Origin: Flavobacteriales bacterium
Lineage (GTDB): Bacteria; Bacteroidota; Bacteroidia; Flavobacteriales; CAJXXR01
Direction: 5' to 3'
Assembly (NCBI GenBank): GCA_025210805.1
Contig: JAOAQX010000003.1
Coordinates: 124,001 to 188,000, forward strand
DNA: 64,000 bases
The translations under genes were made by a program, and so were the position numbers. Of the stretch, positions 52,965 through 58,646 are shown in pieces. The notes under the pieces are model-generated. The model was not told the origin of the DNA. It did no database searches and saw only the letters and a list, made by a program, of their open reading frames with translations. Positions within the stretch are counted from its first letter, which is position 1; each line of letters opens with the position of its first letter.

Positions 52965-53002
52965 AGCAGTGTTGGAAATTAATTTTCAGCACTGCTTTTT
53001 TT
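52965..53002 (+). terminator. Terminator of glutamine synthetase, overlapping the WYL gene 3' end
   Basis: Stem AGCAGTGTTG (52965-52974) / CAGCACTGCT (52987-52996) with one G-U pair, then seven T. The right arm and T-run encode the last residues (KKSSAEN) of the converging WYL gene, whose stop is at 52979. Confidence 0.85.
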
Positions 53003-54004
53003 GTGGTAATTATTTAGTGCTTGCTTTAATTTCCGTTTAATTCTCCTTCTTAGCCCATTAGGCTTTAGGACTTCAATAGAATCTCCAAATCCTAAAATCA
53101 ATCTTTCAAGTTCGTAGTTTTGATGAACTTCTATTTTTATTTCTATGGATTGATCTGCATAGGTTTTTATTAATTCTTGCGATGAATGAAAAGGCTTTGT
53201 GAGTACATAAGGAGCATTTGATCGATCTATTTTTAAAAAAATCGACTCTTTTTGCTTTGGTTTCATCACAGTAACTCCAATGGTGTTTTTGTAGTATTCA
53301 TCAGGATTAATCGTGGTTTTTTTATAGAAATAATCCCATAAAAAATCAATGGAAATAATTCTATCTAAGGCCAGTGTCATAAGAGTTTCTTTACTGGAAC
53401 CCACTAAGAACCAACGATTATTAAATTCCTTTAACCAATAAGGATGAATTGTGAATAAAGACGATTTTCTGGCAGAAAAAGACTGGTAACAAATACTCAA
53501 AACTGTTTTTTTTATAATGCTTTGATAAAGAATATCTAGGTATTTCAAACCTTTTAATCTTTCGTTTTTATCAAGGTGAATTACCGGACCTCTTTGGTTT
53601 TGCTCGGCATAAATCTTGTCTTCAAGTCTATGGATAATACCTCCTAGCTCAGAAAAAAGTGAAAAATCTTTAAATTGTTTTAGCATTTCAACAGTTTCAG
53701 AGAGAATATACATATCGTTTTCCGTTATAGGAATATCCGTTATGGTGTAGTTAGGATCTTCATATTTATAATATTTTTTATCATACACTACAATCGGTGC
53801 ATTATAGCCCAATTTATCACTTCGCATATTTTGGATATCCAATTGAATCGTTCTCTTACTCACATTGACATCACGACTCTCATACTCATAAAGAGCATCT
53901 GAACAGGCTGTGATTAAATCCTTCAAAGTCCATTTTTTATACCTGTTTTGAAGACATTTATCAATGGTTTTATATCGTATTAATGCATTTTTATTTTGAG
54001 CCAT
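52979..54004 (-). CDS. WYL-domain transcriptional regulator divergent from the RNA-repair cassette
   Basis: A 341-residue regulator. Residues 1-75 are a winged helix-turn-helix (DKCLQNRYKKWTLKDLI, VSKRTIQLDIQNM). Residues 165-225 are the WYL domain (HPYWLKEFNNRWFLVGSS at about 187-204, ALDRI at 212-216). A C-terminal WCX-like segment ends FGDSIEVLKPNGLRRRIKR. This is the domain order of BrxR/CapW-type repressors that control phage-defence operons by sensing a nucleic-acid-like ligand in the WYL pocket. It is transcribed away from the tRNA-like array and SPFH-ligase-PNKP genes, which it probably regulates (inference from position). Confidence 0.9.
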   Translation of the reverse strand: MAQNKNALIRYKTIDKCLQNRYKKWTLKDLITACSDALYEYESRDVNVSKRTIQLDIQNMRSDKLGYNAPIVVYDKKYYKYEDPNYTITDIPITENDMYILSETVEMLKQFKDFSLFSELGGIIHRLEDKIYAEQNQRGPVIHLDKNERLKGLKYLDILYQSIIKKTVLSICYQSFSARKSSLFTIHPYWLKEFNNRWFLVGSSKETLMTLALDRIISIDFLWDYFYKKTTINPDEYYKNTIGVTVMKPKQKESIFLKIDRSNAPYVLTKPFHSSQELIKTYADQSIEIKIEVHQNYELERLILGFGDSIEVLKPNGLRRRIKRKLKQALNNYHKKSSAEN

Positions 54005-54230
54005 TAGTGATGTTTTTTGATAAAATTAGAAATAAAAAACTACTACGCAAAATAAATACGCACTTACTATTCATCTTTGCTTTGTCATTTAGAAATAAAT
54101 GCTCAAAACGATCTTTAAATTTATTTACAATATTGAGAGAGCCTTGTTTTGTGTTTCTGTATAGCACTATTGTTCAATAATCTGCCCTTTAGGTATCGAT
54201 TTATAGTATTCAGCTCGGCTCAAAGGTTTG
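54005..54230. promoter_or_regulatory. Divergent control region between the WYL gene and the tRNA-like array
   Basis: 226 AT-rich nt with no plausible gene. It should hold promoters for the leftward WYL gene and the rightward RNA/repair cassette. A near -7 box CATCTTTG lies at 54071-54078 (first base deviates). The 11-mer TTAGAAATAAA occurs at 54026-54036 and 54089-54099, exactly 63 nt (six helical turns) apart, and could be paired regulator sites. The evidence is weak, because such AT-rich words arise by chance. Confidence 0.35.
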
Positions 54231-54248
54231 TGAGTTACCAAAAACTCA
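54231..54248 (+). ncRNA. Hairpin leading the tRNA-like array
   Basis: Perfect 6-bp stem TGAGTT / AACTCA with loop ACCAAA, ending one base before module A begins. It resembles a reduced anticodon stem-loop (TTACCAA would be a Gly loop with A at position 34), but the closing pairs differ from a true 7-nt loop, so the identity is tentative. An upstream stretch, GCTC ... GAGT at 54218-54235, could alternatively form a D-arm-like hairpin. Confidence 0.45.
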
Positions 54249-54318
54249 TATCACGCTATGGCCGCAGGTTCGAATCCTGCCGAGAGTTTCTCGTAGTTCA
54301 GAGGTTAGAACAATAGCC
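54249..54318 (+). ncRNA. Permuted tRNA-like module A (opened in the anticodon loop, Asp-like)
   Basis: Order along the DNA: loop bases TATCAC, anticodon-stem 3' strand GCTAT (54255-54259), 4-nt variable loop, T-arm GCAGG-TTCGAAT-CCTGC (54264-54280), acceptor 3' strand CGAGA, cap GTT, acceptor 5' strand TCTCG (54289-54293), linker TA (positions 8-9), D-arm GTTC-AGAGGTTA-GAAC (54296-54311), A26, anticodon-stem 5' strand ATAGC (54313-54317), C32. All stems pair perfectly (5+5+4+5 bp). Rejoining the halves gives the loop CTATCAC, which differs from the usual tRNA-Asp loop only by A for G at position 34. The natural 5' and 3' ends are fused by a triloop and there is no CCA. Confidence 0.8.
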
Positions 54319-54398
54319 ACCCTATGTAGGTTCGAATCCTACTACTCTTCACTTGAGTATGGCGGAACTGGAAGACGCGCTAGATTTAAGTTCTAGTA
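54319..54398 (+). ncRNA. Permuted tRNA-like module B (opened in the variable arm, Leu-UAA type)
   Basis: Order: variable-arm 3' strand ACCCTA, T-arm GTAGG-TTCGAAT-CCTAC (54326-54342), acceptor 3' strand TACTC, 7-nt cap TTCACTT, acceptor 5' strand GAGTA (54355-54359), TG linker, class II D-arm GCG ... CGC with GG in its loop (54362-54378), and a complete anticodon arm CTAGA-TTTAAGT-TCTAG (54380-54396) with anticodon TAA. The 3-bp D-stem, TG linker and long variable arm are leucine-tRNA features. The variable arm can close as TAG-GGT / ACC-CTA with one bulged A if it borrows 54399-54403 from module C. The acceptor has only 5 bp and no CCA. Confidence 0.8.
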
Positions 54399-54473
54399 GA
54401 GGTAGAGCAATCGACTGATAATCGATGTGTTGTGGGTTCGATTCCCACTTTGACTGAAGAGTCAAATAGCTCA
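54399..54473 (+). ncRNA. Permuted tRNA-like module C (opened in the D-loop, Ile-GAU type)
   Basis: Order: D-loop remainder GAGGTA, D-stem 3' strand GAGC (54405-54408), A26, anticodon arm ATCGA-CTGATAA-TCGAT (54410-54426) with anticodon GAT, 5-nt variable loop, T-arm GTGGG-TTCGATT-CCCAC (54432-54448), acceptor 3' strand TTTGACT, tetraloop GAAG, acceptor 5' strand AGTCAAA (54460-54466), TA linker, D-stem 5' strand GCTC (54469-54472), A14. All 26 pairs (7+4+5+5+5 counting the joined D-loop as canonical AGAGGTA) are Watson-Crick except none required wobble. The full 7-bp acceptor makes this the clearest case. Confidence 0.85.
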
Positions 54474-54477
54474 ATTT

Positions 54478-54496
54478 TTCAGACTAAAAATCTGAA
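54478..54496 (+). ncRNA. Isolated anticodon stem-loop-like hairpin (Phe-like) ending the array
   Basis: Six-bp stem TTCAGA / TCTGAA with 7-nt loop CTAAAAA. It resembles a tRNA-Phe anticodon arm (usual loop CTGAAAA) with A for G at position 34. No T-arm, D-arm or acceptor follows, so only this arm is present. Confidence 0.55.
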
Positions 54497-54782
54497 GTTA
54501 ACTTACAGAAAATGGGTGAATGATTTCGGTGTTAAAAGTCAACAACTGTTGAAAAATGACACAACTTGTAACAGACTTGCAATTGCTATCAATAGGATTC
54601 ATTAAAGTGTTTCTCTTCTATTGAGAATATTGGATTCATTAAGAATACCAATAAAGAAAAATAGAACACAAGCATATTTAAGAATCAAATTCATAGAAAT
54701 TCCGTTTGTTTCACGAGTGAAATCACTCACTCATTTCTTTATGAAGTATCAAACAAAAATTAATCTATAAAAACAAAAAAAA
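54497..54782 (+). other. Structured leader between the tRNA-like array and the SPFH gene
   Basis: 286 nt without a gene. It holds several small hairpins: TCAAC-AACT-GTTGA (54539-54552), TATTGG / CCAATA (54628-54653) and GAGTG-AAAT-CACTC (54715-54728). The direct repeat GGATTCATTAA occurs at 54595-54605 and 54632-54642. No terminator and no -7 box were found, so the array is probably the 5' leader of the SPFH-ligase-PNKP messenger. Confidence 0.4.
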
Positions 54783-55886
54783 ATGGAACTAAGAGTAAAA
54801 ATAAATGCCTACGAAGTAGGAATCGTAATGAAAGATGGGAATATTATTGATATTCTTACAGAAGGTAAATACTTCAAGAAACTTGGTACCGAGGTGTATA
54901 TTTATAATACAACACAGCTCTTTACAAGTAGAATTGAGTGGTCAATTTTGGAAAAAAATGAAAAACTCATGAAAATGTTGGAAATTGTGGATACCACTGA
55001 GAGTGAATTGGCAATAGTATATAAAGACAACAGGTTTTATACTGTTGTAAATAACTCTAGACTTGCGTACTGGAAAGGAGTTTTGAATATGAAATATAAA
55101 AAATATGACATTGAAGAACTTTCTGTTCCTAAAGAAATCAATAAAGCGATACTGAAATACCCACTAATGACTCAGTATTATAGACTTCTAGAAGTATCTT
55201 CACAAGAACAAGCAATCCTGTATGTGAATGGTGAAAAACGCAGTATTATCAAGGGGGGACAATACTATTTCTGGAACAACACAAAGAAATTGAGACTAGA
55301 AAAAGTGGATATGAGAAATCAGGACATGGAAATTATCGGTCAGGAAATTCTCACCAAAGATAAAGCAGCAATTAGGATAAATTTTCAAGCCAATTATAAA
55401 ATAATTGATGTAGAAAAAGCCCTGATGGAAAACAAAGATTTCAGCAAACAACTGTATTCTTCGCTTCAAATGGCGATAAGATCTTATATCGGTACACTAA
55501 CGCTGGATGAATTGATGGAAAACAAAGAGCAAATTTCTGGTTTTATTATAGAAAAAATCAAAAGTAAAATCACAAAACTGGGTGTCGCAGTAAACTCTGC
55601 AGGAATTAAAGATATTATTCTTCCTGGTGAGATAAAGGAAATTATGAACAAAGTATTGGTAGCACAAAAGAGTGCTCAAGCAAATACGATCACCAGAAGA
55701 GAGGAAACGGCTTCAACAAGAAGTTTGTTGAATACTGCAAAATTGATGGATGACAATGAAATGCTCTTCAGATTGAAAGAGATGGAATATGTAGAAAAAA
55801 TTGCAGAAAAAATCGGAGAAATTTCCTTGAATGGAAATGGAGGTATGGTGAAGCAATTGAAAGAAATCTTTGGAGCTAAATCTTGA
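54783..55886 (+). CDS. SPFH/slipin-family protein of an RNA-repair cassette
   Basis: A 367-residue protein. Residues 1-160 are a mixed alpha/beta region starting MELRVKINAYEVGIVMKDGN. Residues 165-290 match the band-7/SPFH fold (EQAILYVNGEKRSIIKGGQYYFW, EILTKDKAAIRINFQANYKI, IKSKITKLGVAVNSAGIKDI). A helical coiled coil rich in Glu and Ala follows (VLVAQKSAQANTITRREE). No N-terminal membrane helix is visible. Slipins are known companions of bacterial RNA-repair operons (for example with RtcB), as I recall. A scaffold role is inferred. It is the first coding gene after the tRNA-like array. Confidence 0.85.
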   Translation: MELRVKINAYEVGIVMKDGNIIDILTEGKYFKKLGTEVYIYNTTQLFTSRIEWSILEKNEKLMKMLEIVDTTESELAIVYKDNRFYTVVNNSRLAYWKGVLNMKYKKYDIEELSVPKEINKAILKYPLMTQYYRLLEVSSQEQAILYVNGEKRSIIKGGQYYFWNNTKKLRLEKVDMRNQDMEIIGQEILTKDKAAIRINFQANYKIIDVEKALMENKDFSKQLYSSLQMAIRSYIGTLTLDELMENKEQISGFIIEKIKSKITKLGVAVNSAGIKDIILPGEIKEIMNKVLVAQKSAQANTITRREETASTRSLLNTAKLMDDNEMLFRLKEMEYVEKIAEKIGEISLNGNGGMVKQLKEIFGAKS

Positions 55887-55892
55887 ACTAAG

Positions 55893-55919
55893 GCACGATT
55901 TGAATAATCAATCGTGCCG
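55893..55919 (+). other. Intercistronic hairpin between SPFH and RNA ligase genes
   Basis: Perfect 9-bp stem GGCACGATT (55893-55901) / AATCGTGCC (55911-55919) with a 9-nt loop and no U-tract. It lies in the 52-nt spacer before the ligase ATG and could tune stability, processing or translation of the two halves of the messenger. Confidence 0.6.
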
Positions 55920-55938
55920 TTCTATAAAAACAGAAAAA

Positions 55939-56961
55939 ATGAAATCTACAATAAACATTCAGAAAATTAGAGAATACATATCAAAAGGCTGGATTACAGA
56001 AAAAAAACACCCTATTCATGATATTTTTATTTACAATTACAGCCAAAAAACACAATTTGAATATTTTTGGGACACAACCACAATACAGTGTAGAGGATTG
56101 ATTTTAAACAAAGAGGGCTTTATACATGCAAGACCTTTTCAGAAATTCTTTAACCTATCTGAGCATCAAGGTGAAATCCCAAATGAAGCCTTTGAAGTTT
56201 TTGAAAAAATGGATGGTTCATTGGGGATATTATATTGGCTAGAAAATGAACCTTATATTGCAACAAGAGGCTCTTTTGAGTCTTGTCAAGCAAAGTTTGC
56301 AAATCAACTTTTAAGAACAAAATATCGACATATCTGGCAAAATTTGAATCCTAAATACACATACCTATTTGAGATTATCTATCCAGAAAATAGAATTGTG
56401 GTAGATTATGGAGCAGATGAAAAACTGGTTTTACTAGCCATTATTGACACACAAACAGGACAAGATATACCATTAAAAAACATCGGATTTCCTTTGGTAA
56501 AGAAATACTCAAACATCAAAAACATTACAGGTTTATCTAAGGAAAACAAAAAGAATGCTGAAGGCTATGTATTGCGATTTGAAAGTGGATTGAGATTAAA
56601 AATCAAATTTGACGAATATATTCACTTACATAAAATATACAATAACATTTCCTCTTTAGTCATTTGGAATCAGATGAAAAACGAAAGTTTAAACGAAAAA
56701 TTTTTAGCGGAAATTCCCGATGAAATTTATCCATGGATAAAAGAAATACAACATAAACTTGAGAAACAATATTCTGAAATAGAAAATCTTGCAAAACAAG
56801 AATACAAAGAATATCATACAAGAAAAGAAACTGCTGAATATTTCAAAACTTGTAAGCATCCAAGTATTTTGTTTTCCATGTTGAATGGAAAAAGTTATTC
56901 GGAATATATATGGAAATTAATTAGACCAAATTTTGAAAAACCCAAAATAACAAGAAAATGA
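55939..56961 (+). CDS. T4 Rnl1-like RNA ligase
   Basis: A 340-residue ATP-dependent RNA ligase. CRGLILNKEGFIHARPFQKFFN (about 51-72) precedes the adenylated Lys90 in FEKMDGSLGILYW (motif I KxDG). GSFES (motif III-like region), YLFEIIYPENRIVVDY, and EGYVLRFESGLRLKIKFDEY (motifs IV-V) complete the nucleotidyltransferase. A C-terminal helical domain follows. It seals 5'-phosphate to 3'-OH ends, the second half of T4-style tRNA repair. Start ATG 55939 (MKSTINIQKI) is chosen; the frame is open into the SPFH gene but that extension is not family-like. Its stop overlaps the PNKP start (ATGA). Confidence 0.93.
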   Translation: MKSTINIQKIREYISKGWITEKKHPIHDIFIYNYSQKTQFEYFWDTTTIQCRGLILNKEGFIHARPFQKFFNLSEHQGEIPNEAFEVFEKMDGSLGILYWLENEPYIATRGSFESCQAKFANQLLRTKYRHIWQNLNPKYTYLFEIIYPENRIVVDYGADEKLVLLAIIDTQTGQDIPLKNIGFPLVKKYSNIKNITGLSKENKKNAEGYVLRFESGLRLKIKFDEYIHLHKIYNNISSLVIWNQMKNESLNEKFLAEIPDEIYPWIKEIQHKLEKQYSEIENLAKQEYKEYHTRKETAEYFKTCKHPSILFSMLNGKSYSEYIWKLIRPNFEKPKITRK

Positions 56962-57839
56962 AAAAGATCATTTTACTTAAAGGTTTACCCGCAAGTGGAA
57001 AATCAACTTATGCAAAAGCCTTGGTAAAAAACAACCCAGGAATGTATAAAAGAATCAATAGAGATGAACTAAGAGACATGCTAGATTCTGGAAAATTTTC
57101 TAAGGGAAATGAGCAATTTGTTAAAAAAACCAGAGACTTTTTAATCAAAATGGCACTACAAGACGGAAAACACGTGATTGTAGATGATACCAATTTGCAT
57201 AGCTCAAATGAAGAGAAAATGAGAGCAATTGCAAAAGAATTTAAAGAAGAAACTGGACACCAAGTTCGGGTAGAAATAAAAACATTTGACACTTCTGTAG
57301 AAGTTTGTATAAAACGAGATCTATTGCGTGAAAATCCCGTTGGACAAGCAGTTATTAGAAAAATGGAACGACAAATGAATTCTAAGGAAAAAAAGTATCC
57401 TAAATACAGCGTTCAAAACCCTGAACTGCCCAAGGCAATTATATGCGATTTAGATGGAACTCTAGCCTTAATGCACGATAGAGGTCCATTTGAGGGGAAT
57501 AAATGCTTATCAGATTTACCAAACACTCCAATAGTGAATTTGGTGAAAAATTATCATAAAATGGGCTTCAAAATACTCTTGCTTTCGGGGAGAGATGGAC
57601 AATTTGAAAATGAAACCAAAAAATGGCTGGAGCAATATAAAATCCCTTATGATCAACTATGGATGCGTGCTAAAAAAGACATGAGAAAAGATGCCATTAT
57701 CAAAAAAGAATTATTCAAACAAAACATTCAGGATCAATATTTTGTGGAATTTATTCTCGATGACAGAAATCAAGTAGTGGATTTATGGAGAAATGAATTA
57801 AATTTACCTTGTCTTCAAGTGTATTATGGGGATTTTTAA
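56958..57839 (+). CDS. pnkp: T4 Pnkp-like polynucleotide kinase-phosphatase
   Basis: A 293-residue end-healing enzyme with the same domain order and length as phage T4 Pnkp. Residues 1-150 are the 5'-kinase: P-loop GLPASGKST (9-17), INRDEL, DDTNLH (76-81) and RDLLRENPVGQAVI. Residues 158-293 are the HAD-type 3'-phosphatase: DLDGTLA (nucleophile Asp164, acid Asp166), LLSGRDGQ, Lys in RKDAIIK, and LDDRNQVVDLWR. It removes 2',3'-cyclic phosphate or 3'-phosphate and phosphorylates 5'-OH, preparing ends for the adjoining ligase. It is translationally coupled to the ligase by a 4-nt overlap. Confidence 0.95.
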   Translation: MKKIILLKGLPASGKSTYAKALVKNNPGMYKRINRDELRDMLDSGKFSKGNEQFVKKTRDFLIKMALQDGKHVIVDDTNLHSSNEEKMRAIAKEFKEETGHQVRVEIKTFDTSVEVCIKRDLLRENPVGQAVIRKMERQMNSKEKKYPKYSVQNPELPKAIICDLDGTLALMHDRGPFEGNKCLSDLPNTPIVNLVKNYHKMGFKILLLSGRDGQFENETKKWLEQYKIPYDQLWMRAKKDMRKDAIIKKELFKQNIQDQYFVEFILDDRNQVVDLWRNELNLPCLQVYYGDF

Positions 57840-57857: not shown

Positions 57858-58646
57858 ATGAAACGTAAACAACTATTCGAATTTGAAGATTTTCATTGGA
57901 TTCCTTCATCCATCCGAGCTGGGATGACCAATTTATTAATTGCTTTTGGAAATGTTGTAAAAGCAGATGAAGCCGTGTTTTCTCGACTCAATGAAGTGAA
58001 AAAAGAAATTCCCTTTGATCAAATTGTGGATCTTGGTTCTGGATCAGGTGGTATTATGCCTAAAGTAGCAAAAAAACTGGGAGTCAAATTAGTTTTAACA
58101 GATTTATATCCGAACCCAAAAGTAGTTTCTAGTTTTAATGAACCTCAAAACGCCGATATTCGATATGAGGAGAAATCTGTAGATGCGACTCATTTTGAAA
58201 CAGCTCCAAGGGGTTTTAAAACCATGATTAATAGTTTTCATCACATGCCAGTACCCGTGGCAAAAAAGATTTTGGCTTCCGCCCAAAAAAACCGAGAGGG
58301 AATTTTGATTTATGAATTGGCAGAAAACAATATCCCATTTTTAGTATGGCTTTTATTGTTACCTATTTCTATCCCAATCTTAATGCTGATGGCTGTTTTC
58401 TTAACCTTACAAGTAAAAAAATGCACTTGGCAGCAGATTGTTTTCACTTTTATAATTCCCATTATTCCATTTATGTACGCCTTCGATGGTCAAACATCAT
58501 TAATGAGAATCTACTCATTTAAAGATATCGAAAATGATTTATTAGGTGATCTTCCAAAAGAAGATTCTTATGTCTGGAGAATAGAAAAAGCCTTTAAGGA
58601 AAATGGAAAACAAATGGGTTATACCATTATTGGACAACCAAAATAA
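57858..58646 (+). CDS. Class I SAM-methyltransferase-like protein with membrane segments
   Basis: A 262-residue protein. Residues 45-150 are a Rossmann methyltransferase core (IVDLGSGSGGIMPKVAK, then LVLTDLYPNPKVV). Residues 165-225 contain two hydrophobic segments (VWLLLLPISIPILMLMAVFL and IVFTFIIPIIPFMYAFDG). The N-terminus FEDFHWIPSSIRAGMTN is distinctive. The substrate is unknown. It begins 18 nt after PNKP and might belong to the repair transcript, but similar stand-alone proteins occur in Bacteroidota, so membership is uncertain. It converges with the next gene at only 7 nt. Confidence 0.75.
   Translation: MKRKQLFEFEDFHWIPSSIRAGMTNLLIAFGNVVKADEAVFSRLNEVKKEIPFDQIVDLGSGSGGIMPKVAKKLGVKLVLTDLYPNPKVVSSFNEPQNADIRYEEKSVDATHFETAPRGFKTMINSFHHMPVPVAKKILASAQKNREGILIYELAENNIPFLVWLLLLPISIPILMLMAVFLTLQVKKCTWQQIVFTFIIPIIPFMYAFDGQTSLMRIYSFKDIENDLLGDLPKEDSYVWRIEKAFKENGKQMGYTIIGQPK

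What the first reader, a model, noticed from the sequence alone, without database searches (positions are those of the whole stretch)
54231..54496. Tandem array of circularly permuted tRNA-like modules
Three consecutive modules each carry T-arm and acceptor 3' strand first, a short cap loop, then acceptor 5' strand and D-arm, so that the tRNA fold closes only if the RNA is read as a permuted tRNA. The acceptor stems pair perfectly across caps of 3, 7 and 4 nt, and canonical positions (U8-A9 or UG, GG in the D-loop, TTCGAAT/TTCGATT) are kept. The modules tile end to end with almost no spacer and differ in the opening point: anticodon loop, variable arm, D-loop. Permuted tRNA genes are established in some algae and archaea; I know of no such tandem array in bacteria. 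Perfect pairing of this many stems by chance or decay is very unlikely.
Basis: partly seen in the sequence, partly recalled or inferred. Interest (0 to 1): 0.97.

Follow-up and report, generated by a model that had tools for sequence, protein, structure and literature searches.

The report
RNA chain of inside-out tRNA mimics
In front of a set of RNA-repair genes, this bacterium carries a non-coding RNA built from three tRNA look-alikes wired in permuted order with sealed ends, and the same design recurs beside the same cage-type (SPFH) gene across the Bacteroidota, so it is a real RNA family, akin to bacterial Y RNAs and probably part of how cells handle damaged tRNA.

Summary
Window 54255-54472 encodes three tRNA-like modules in permuted order (T-arm, acceptor 3' strand, 3/7/4-nt cap, acceptor 5' strand, D-arm), opened at the anticodon loop, the variable region and the D-loop. 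It lies in the leader of a WYL-slipin-RNA ligase-polynucleotide kinase cluster. The same design occurs upstream of slipin in 89 of 97 Bacteroidota loci. A test that ignores acceptor pairing finds all five leading acceptor pairs in 138 of 176 units (shuffled partners: mean 7.6, maximum 15 in 1000); the ordinary tRNA reading gives 4 of 87. All four helices covary.

These are not permuted tRNA genes: the caps leave no room for mature ends, and the first module's ends lie in the anticodon loop. [quoted passage not shown] Full YrlA membership fails (31.5 bits against 69; no Ro60 gene in the genome). From memory, a 2016 survey reported a "novel tRNA-like molecule" cognate to SPFH/Band-7 proteins in RNA-repair operons; this is probably that RNA, but I could not read the paper.

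The tandem permuted architecture, anticodon-open first module and flanking pseudoknots look new. Function (slipin-bound scaffold or nuclease bait) is inferred.

The parts
52979..54004 (-). WYL-WCX transcription regulator, divergent; likely regulator of the unit
   Evidence: Pfam WYL 1.2e-10, WCX 1.7e-12; tblastn finds a WYL relative within the fetched flank in 26 of 97 loci
54041..54079 (+). Operator-like repeat TACGCA-N7-TACGCA (family consensus ACTGCGCA-N7-TGCGCAGT), followed by CATCTTTG (54072-54079), a Bacteroidota -7-like element
   Evidence: Same repeat with exactly 7-nt spacing in 52 of 97 loci; promoter role inferred
54153..54165 (+). Conserved 5' motif GTTTCTGTATAGC of the RNA
   Evidence: Motif in 57 of 97 loci
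54225..54248 (+). 5' H-type pseudoknot GG..CC / TGAGTT..AACTCA with A-rich loop
   Evidence: Pattern in 54 of 97 loci with compensatory changes, 2-6 in shuffles
54255..54317 (+). Module 1: permuted tRNA-like unit opened at the anticodon loop, acceptor capped by GTT
   Evidence: Model R1 64.6 bits; anticodon-stem closure 61/89 first modules vs 21.9 in shuffles; covariation
54326..54396 (+). Module 2: Leu-like permuted unit opened in the variable region, cap TTCACTT, anticodon loop TTTAAGT (UAA)
   Evidence: Direct reading; R1 27.3 bits
54398..54472 (+). Module 3: Ile-like permuted unit opened in the D-loop, cap GAAG, anticodon loop CTGATAA (GAU)
   Evidence: Direct reading; R1 36.8 bits; by eye the same split in L057, not found by the script
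54480..54494 (+). Terminal free-standing anticodon-like hairpin CAGA-CTAAAAA-TCTG
   Evidence: Direct reading; similar terminal hairpins in many loci
54783..55886 (+). Slipin (SPFH/Band-7) with three N-terminal beta repeats; the one constant protein partner of the RNA
   Evidence: Pfam Band_7 6e-25; PDB stomatin 1e-15; model
55870..56961 (+). T4 Rnl1-like RNA ligase (likely ATG start 55942)
   Evidence: Pfam RNA_lig_T4_1 1.2e-16; TIGR02308 match below its cut-off
56958..57839 (+). Polynucleotide kinase - HAD phosphatase (RNA end healing)
   Evidence: Pfam HAD_PNKP 3e-51, AAA_33

Best explanation
The segment encodes a structured non-coding RNA, transcribed from a WYL-controlled promoter as the leader of an SPFH/slipin RNA-repair operon. 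SHOWN by comparative sequence: its core is a chain of circularly permuted tRNA mimics with sealed acceptor stems (YrlA-type topology), preceded by a pseudoknot and, in most relatives, followed by another. INFERRED: it is transcribed; the mimics fold into tRNA elbows and are bound by the (probably ring-forming) slipin, which replaces Ro60 as the RNA's protein partner. The RNP then acts as a multi-headed tRNA-shaped scaffold that brings tRNA-handling enzymes (here T4-type RNA ligase and polynucleotide kinase-phosphatase; in many relatives RtcB) together with damaged tRNA. The first module, open in the anticodon loop, has the shape of a tRNA cut by an anticodon nuclease with its far ends sealed, which could dock, gate or calibrate the repair enzymes.
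For: Capped acceptor stems covary; anticodon-stem closure of module 1 covaries. Conserved placement upstream of slipin in 89 of 97 loci, also where slipin has no operon partner, so slipin is the constant partner. Cluster holds RNA ligase and PNK or RtcB (41 of 97 within the fetched flank). Module matches the Rfam YrlA tRNA-like domain at E = 1e-4. In other Bacteroidota, YrlA-scoring tandem units lie directly upstream of RtcB, and other R1 matches sit beside Ro60 (TROVE) and often RtcB. Ro60 is absent from the window's genome. Conserved operator with exact 7-nt spacing; 5' and 3' pseudoknots. Slipin core resembles stomatins, solved as ring- and cage-like assemblies.
Against: No expression, probing or binding data. 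The slipin-RNA contact is inferred from gene order only. In the window itself the 3' pseudoknot was not recognised, and its three modules differ from the usual pair, so this copy is divergent. Folding energy alone does not pick the permuted fold.
Confidence: 0.55

Rival explanations
1. Bait or sensor for anticodon nucleases: the chain offers several anticodon-like loops and tRNA elbows; its cleavage, or titration of the nuclease, protects real tRNAs and signals damage to the WYL regulator or the repair enzymes.
For: Anticodon-like hairpins recur in the arrays, with Lys UUU the most frequent; RNA ligase and end-healing enzymes are the next genes; WYL proteins occur among defence-associated regulators. 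A competitive-inhibitor role was suggested for YrlA's tRNA-like domain (PMC7790460).
Against: Many modules lack an intact anticodon loop and 34 of 88 loci have no canonical anticodon hairpin by a strict rule. In Salmonella, YrlA fragments were not detected when tRNAs were cut (PMC7790460).
Confidence: 0.25
2. Cis-acting leader: the tRNA-like chain is a riboregulator of the downstream slipin mRNA, responding to tRNA-binding or tRNA-modifying proteins, and has no role of its own in trans.
For: It lies between the predicted promoter and the slipin start codon on the same strand.
Against: About 290 nt separate the array from the slipin start; no alternative expression fold was found. A stem followed by a T-rich stretch at 54715-54732 could separate RNA from mRNA.
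Confidence: 0.15
3. Circularly permuted tRNA genes that are processed into working tRNAs.
For: The order of halves is permuted as in algal and archaeal permuted tRNA genes.
Against: Caps of mostly 3-7 nt leave no CCA or mature ends; module 1 has its ends in the anticodon loop; the genome has about 41 ordinary, full-scoring tRNA genes elsewhere.
Confidence: 0.02
4. Decayed tandem tRNA genes whose permuted pairing is a by-product of duplication.
For: Tandem identical tRNA genes do give matches to the permuted model, and parts of the array resemble ordinary tRNA genes at 79-92% in short stretches.
Against: Ordinary reading pairs no better than chance (4 of 87); caps are too short; stems covary and the position is conserved across many families.
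Confidence: 0.02

Closest known systems
YrlA bacterial Y RNA (Rfam RF02553; structure PDB 6CU1)
   Same: tRNA-like domain is a circular permutation of tRNA (PMC11472068): T-arm, sealed acceptor stem, D-arm, with the RNA entering through the anticodon side; occurs in RNA-repair operons.
   Different: Window modules match only model positions 26-82 and 25-83 of 114 and score 31.5 and 24.4 bits against a gathering score of 69. No Ro60 gene in the genome, several modules fused in one leader, pseudoknot flank, slipin partner.
'Novel tRNA-like molecule' cognate to SPFH/Band-7 modules in RNA-repair systems (Burroughs and Aravind 2016, NAR 44:8525; recalled from memory, paper not held)
   Same: tRNA-like RNA beside an SPFH gene in an RNA-repair operon.
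   Different: I could not check whether that paper describes permutation, capped acceptors, tandem modules or the pseudoknots.
rsr-yrlBA-rtcBA RNA-repair operon of Salmonella (PMC7790460)
   Same: Repair-ligase operon with a tRNA-mimicking RNA, induced by tRNA damage.
   Different: Here WYL instead of RtcR, slipin instead of Rsr, and T4-type ligase plus PNK instead of RtcBA.
Circularly permuted tRNA genes of algae and archaea (from general knowledge; PMC3978253 seen in search results only)
   Same: 3' half encoded before 5' half.
   Different: Those give mature tRNAs; here acceptors are sealed by very short loops.
Vault particle (MVP, TEP1 with TROVE, vault RNA)
   Same: SPFH-type shell protein with a small RNA, and a TROVE partner in some relatives.
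   Different: The full-length slipin model matches MVP (rank 9) after stomatins and HflK/C, but the N-terminal repeats alone match nothing significantly.

Membership tests
YrlA Y RNA | Circularly permuted tRNA-like domain with sealed acceptor stem | tested here: met
   Structure and covariation; Rfam YrlA local match E = 1e-4
YrlA Y RNA | Whole RNA reaches the Rfam gathering score, including the basal Ro60-binding stem | tested here: not met
   31.5 and 24.4 bits against 69; model positions 26-82 and 25-83 of 114 only
YrlA Y RNA | Ro60/Rsr (TROVE) protein encoded in the genome | tested here: not met
   No TROVE in G000; 2 of the 18 genomes with the slipin have one
SPFH/Band-7-associated tRNA-like RNA (2016) | tRNA-like RNA encoded next to an SPFH gene in an RNA-repair cluster | tested here: met
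SPFH/Band-7-associated tRNA-like RNA (2016) | Same sequence and structure as published | not testable with these tools
   Paper not held
Circularly permuted tRNA gene | 3' half precedes 5' half | tested here: met
Circularly permuted tRNA gene | Continuous anticodon loop and processable mature acceptor ends | tested here: not met
Ordinary tRNA gene or tandem tRNA genes | Acceptor 5' strand pairs with the 3' strand that follows it | tested here: not met
   4 of 87 across loci
tmRNA (permuted) | Match to the tmRNA model | tested here: not met
   Only a 17-nt, 11.3-bit match

The most novel reading that the evidence does not exclude
A widespread bacterial ribonucleoprotein in which a ring- or cage-forming SPFH protein holds a chain of permuted tRNA mimics, the first shaped like a nuclease-cut tRNA with its far ends sealed, and uses it to guide or gate tRNA repair: a Ro60-free counterpart of the Y-RNA system, possibly vault-like in principle.
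Probability: 0.3. Interest if true: 0.85.

Novelty: new variant of a known kind. Interest (0 to 1): 0.68.

Why it matters
It shows that permuted, acceptor-sealed tRNA mimics are not confined to single Y RNAs but are strung together in a large RNA family of the Bacteroidota that is tied to an SPFH protein instead of Ro60. That makes concrete questions testable: what the tRNA mimic does in RNA-repair operons, whether SPFH cages bind RNA, and whether the anticodon-open module is a stand-in for cut tRNA. It also warns that tRNA finders miscall such arrays.

Tried and rejected
Ordinary tRNA or tandem tRNA reading: rejected. Genome-wide tallies with model R1: not usable, because tandem identical tRNA genes also match. 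Slipin relatives in viral contigs: none. Plasmid DNA search: only a 41-nt match. Vault-like N-terminal repeats: the full-length model hits MVP, but the repeat part alone has no significant match, so the vault parallel rests on the SPFH domain only. The 3' pseudoknot, found in 52 of 89 relatives against 1-8 in shuffles, could not be found in the window. The script test for D-loop-split modules found only the window's own; L057 shows the same split by eye but fails its strict anticodon-stem rule. Key papers (Burroughs and Aravind 2016; Chen 2014; Sim 2020) were not held.

Full report
OBSERVATION. Window 54231-54496 was read base by base. Three modules are present, each with T-arm, acceptor 3' strand, short cap, acceptor 5' strand, U8-A9 (or UG) and D-arm strand. 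Module 1 (54255-54317) closes an anticodon stem GCUAU/AUAGC across its two ends, so the RNA enters and leaves in the anticodon loop. Module 2 (54326-54396) is Leu-like and keeps its anticodon arm; it is open in the variable region. Module 3 (54398-54472) is Ile-like, keeps its anticodon arm and is open in the D-loop (GAGC first, GCUC last). Caps are 3, 7 and 4 nt. A further anticodon-like hairpin follows at 54480-54494. The tRNA-Ser called by ARAGORN and the Rfam tRNA hit run across modules 2 and 3; at 32.2 bits the Rfam hit is far below the genome's ordinary tRNA genes, about 41 at 47.9-75.3 bits.

SURROUNDINGS. The array lies in a ~780-nt gap between a divergent WYL-WCX regulator (52979-54004, minus) and a slipin (SPFH/Band-7, 54783-55886), followed by a T4 Rnl1-like RNA ligase (55870-56961) and a polynucleotide kinase with HAD phosphatase (56958-57839). 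These are enzymes that heal and seal cut RNA.

RELATIVES. Slipin relatives in Bacteroidia genomes and in 80 named genome loci (Flavobacteriaceae, Saprospiraceae, Chitinophagaceae, Cytophagales and others) were examined for their upstream DNA. Of 97 leaders, 89 carry at least one permuted module, usually two; 175 modules in all, against 2.65 in Markov shuffles of the same sequences. Caps are mostly 3-7 nt, nucleotides 8-9 are UA or UG in 160 of 175, and there are 133 different acceptor 3' strands. A few of these automatic calls upstream of the array are ordinary tRNA genes, so the count is approximate.

COVARIATION. To avoid circularity, units were found by T-arm and D-arm only; the first five acceptor positions then pair in full in 138 of 176 units, against a mean of 7.6 and a maximum of 15 in 1000 shuffles of partners. 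The ordinary tRNA reading (5' strand of one unit with the 3' strand of the next) gives 4 of 87. The anticodon-stem closure of first modules is perfect in 61 of 89 against 21.9 (maximum 34) in shuffles. On alignment A2, 96.5% of cells pair, 260 cells have changes on both sides, and the covariation score is 0.785 against 0.244 in shuffles and at most 0.22 when slid. A2 was selected for closure, so these figures lean towards the structure; the test does not. The covariance model R1 finds all three window modules (64.6, 36.8 and 27.3 bits); the window's first module was in its training set.

WHOLE RNA. Upstream there is a conserved GTTTCTGTATAGC motif (57 of 97) and an H-type pseudoknot (54 of 97 against 2-6 in shuffles, with compensatory changes; window 54225-54248). 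After the last module most relatives have a second pseudoknot with an A-rich loop (52 of 89 against 1-8 in shuffles at the stricter score), not recognised in the window. A repeat TGCGCA-N7-TGCGCA (palindromic when extended to ACTGCGCA...TGCGCAGT) with a following TTTG element is found in 52 loci and in diverged form at window 54041-54079; it is the likely WYL operator and promoter (inference).

PARTNERS. The constant protein is slipin, also in loci where no operon partner follows it. Ro60 is missing from the window's genome and from 16 of the 18 genomes that have the slipin. Slipin's core resembles stomatins, whose solved relatives form rings and cages. Its model has three N-terminal beta repeats, the SPFH domain and a C-terminal helix. 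MVP appears among the full-length hits, but the repeats alone match nothing significantly.

LINK TO Y RNA. Rfam YrlA matches modules 1 and 3 over model positions 26-82 and 25-83 of 114 (31.5 and 24.4 bits, gathering score 69). YrlA is a known circular permutation of tRNA (PMC11472068), with a tRNA-like domain on a basal stem that holds Rsr (PMC8394870). In another class of the phylum, a tandem array directly upstream of RtcB has units that do pass YrlA's gathering score (L146), and further R1 matches lie beside Ro60 and often RtcB. So window-type arrays and Y RNAs share the module but differ in partner and assembly.

WHAT IT IS AND DOES. Shown: a conserved, covarying structured element made of permuted tRNA mimics, in the leader of slipin/RNA-repair units. 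Inferred: it is transcribed as an RNA, binds slipin and acts as a tRNA-shaped scaffold for repair; the main rival is a bait for anticodon nucleases, and a leader-only role is possible. Permuted tRNA genes and tRNA remnants are rejected.

KNOWN OR NEW. From memory, Burroughs and Aravind (2016) named a novel tRNA-like molecule as the cognate RNA of SPFH/Band-7 modules in RNA-repair systems; this is probably the same class, and I could not read the paper. The permuted tandem build, the anticodon-open first module, the operator and the pseudoknots are what this analysis adds, as far as I can tell. Hence: new variant of a known kind.

Noticed in passing
L146 1100-2200 (G521:C1 ~886600-887700) and L145: Long tandem arrays of YrlA-type units (five or more in L146, directly upstream of RtcB; L145 has several irregular ones) in another Bacteroidota class, each unit with its own flanking stem.
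   Followed up: partly
L169, L170, L172, L174, L175, L176: R1-matching RNAs beside Ro60 (TROVE) genes, often with RtcB; L170 also has a palindromic TACGTA-type repeat upstream of the module.
   Followed up: partly
L062, L063, L064, L115, L126: Some first modules have 7-bp acceptors closed by caps of about 18-22 nt instead of 3-7 nt, as if a leader-trailer joint had been kept.
   Followed up: no
window 57858-58646: Methyltransferase-like gene 18 nt after the PNK gene, weak Pfam match below cut-off; may belong to the repair unit.
   Followed up: no
window 54360-54457: ARAGORN and Rfam call a tRNA here that is an artefact of two adjoining permuted modules; such arrays will be mis-annotated.
   Followed up: yes
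Bacteroidota genomes (e.g. L151, L154, L163): Tandem identical tRNA genes score well with a permuted-tRNA model because neighbouring copies can pair across; a trap for searches of this kind.
   Followed up: yes
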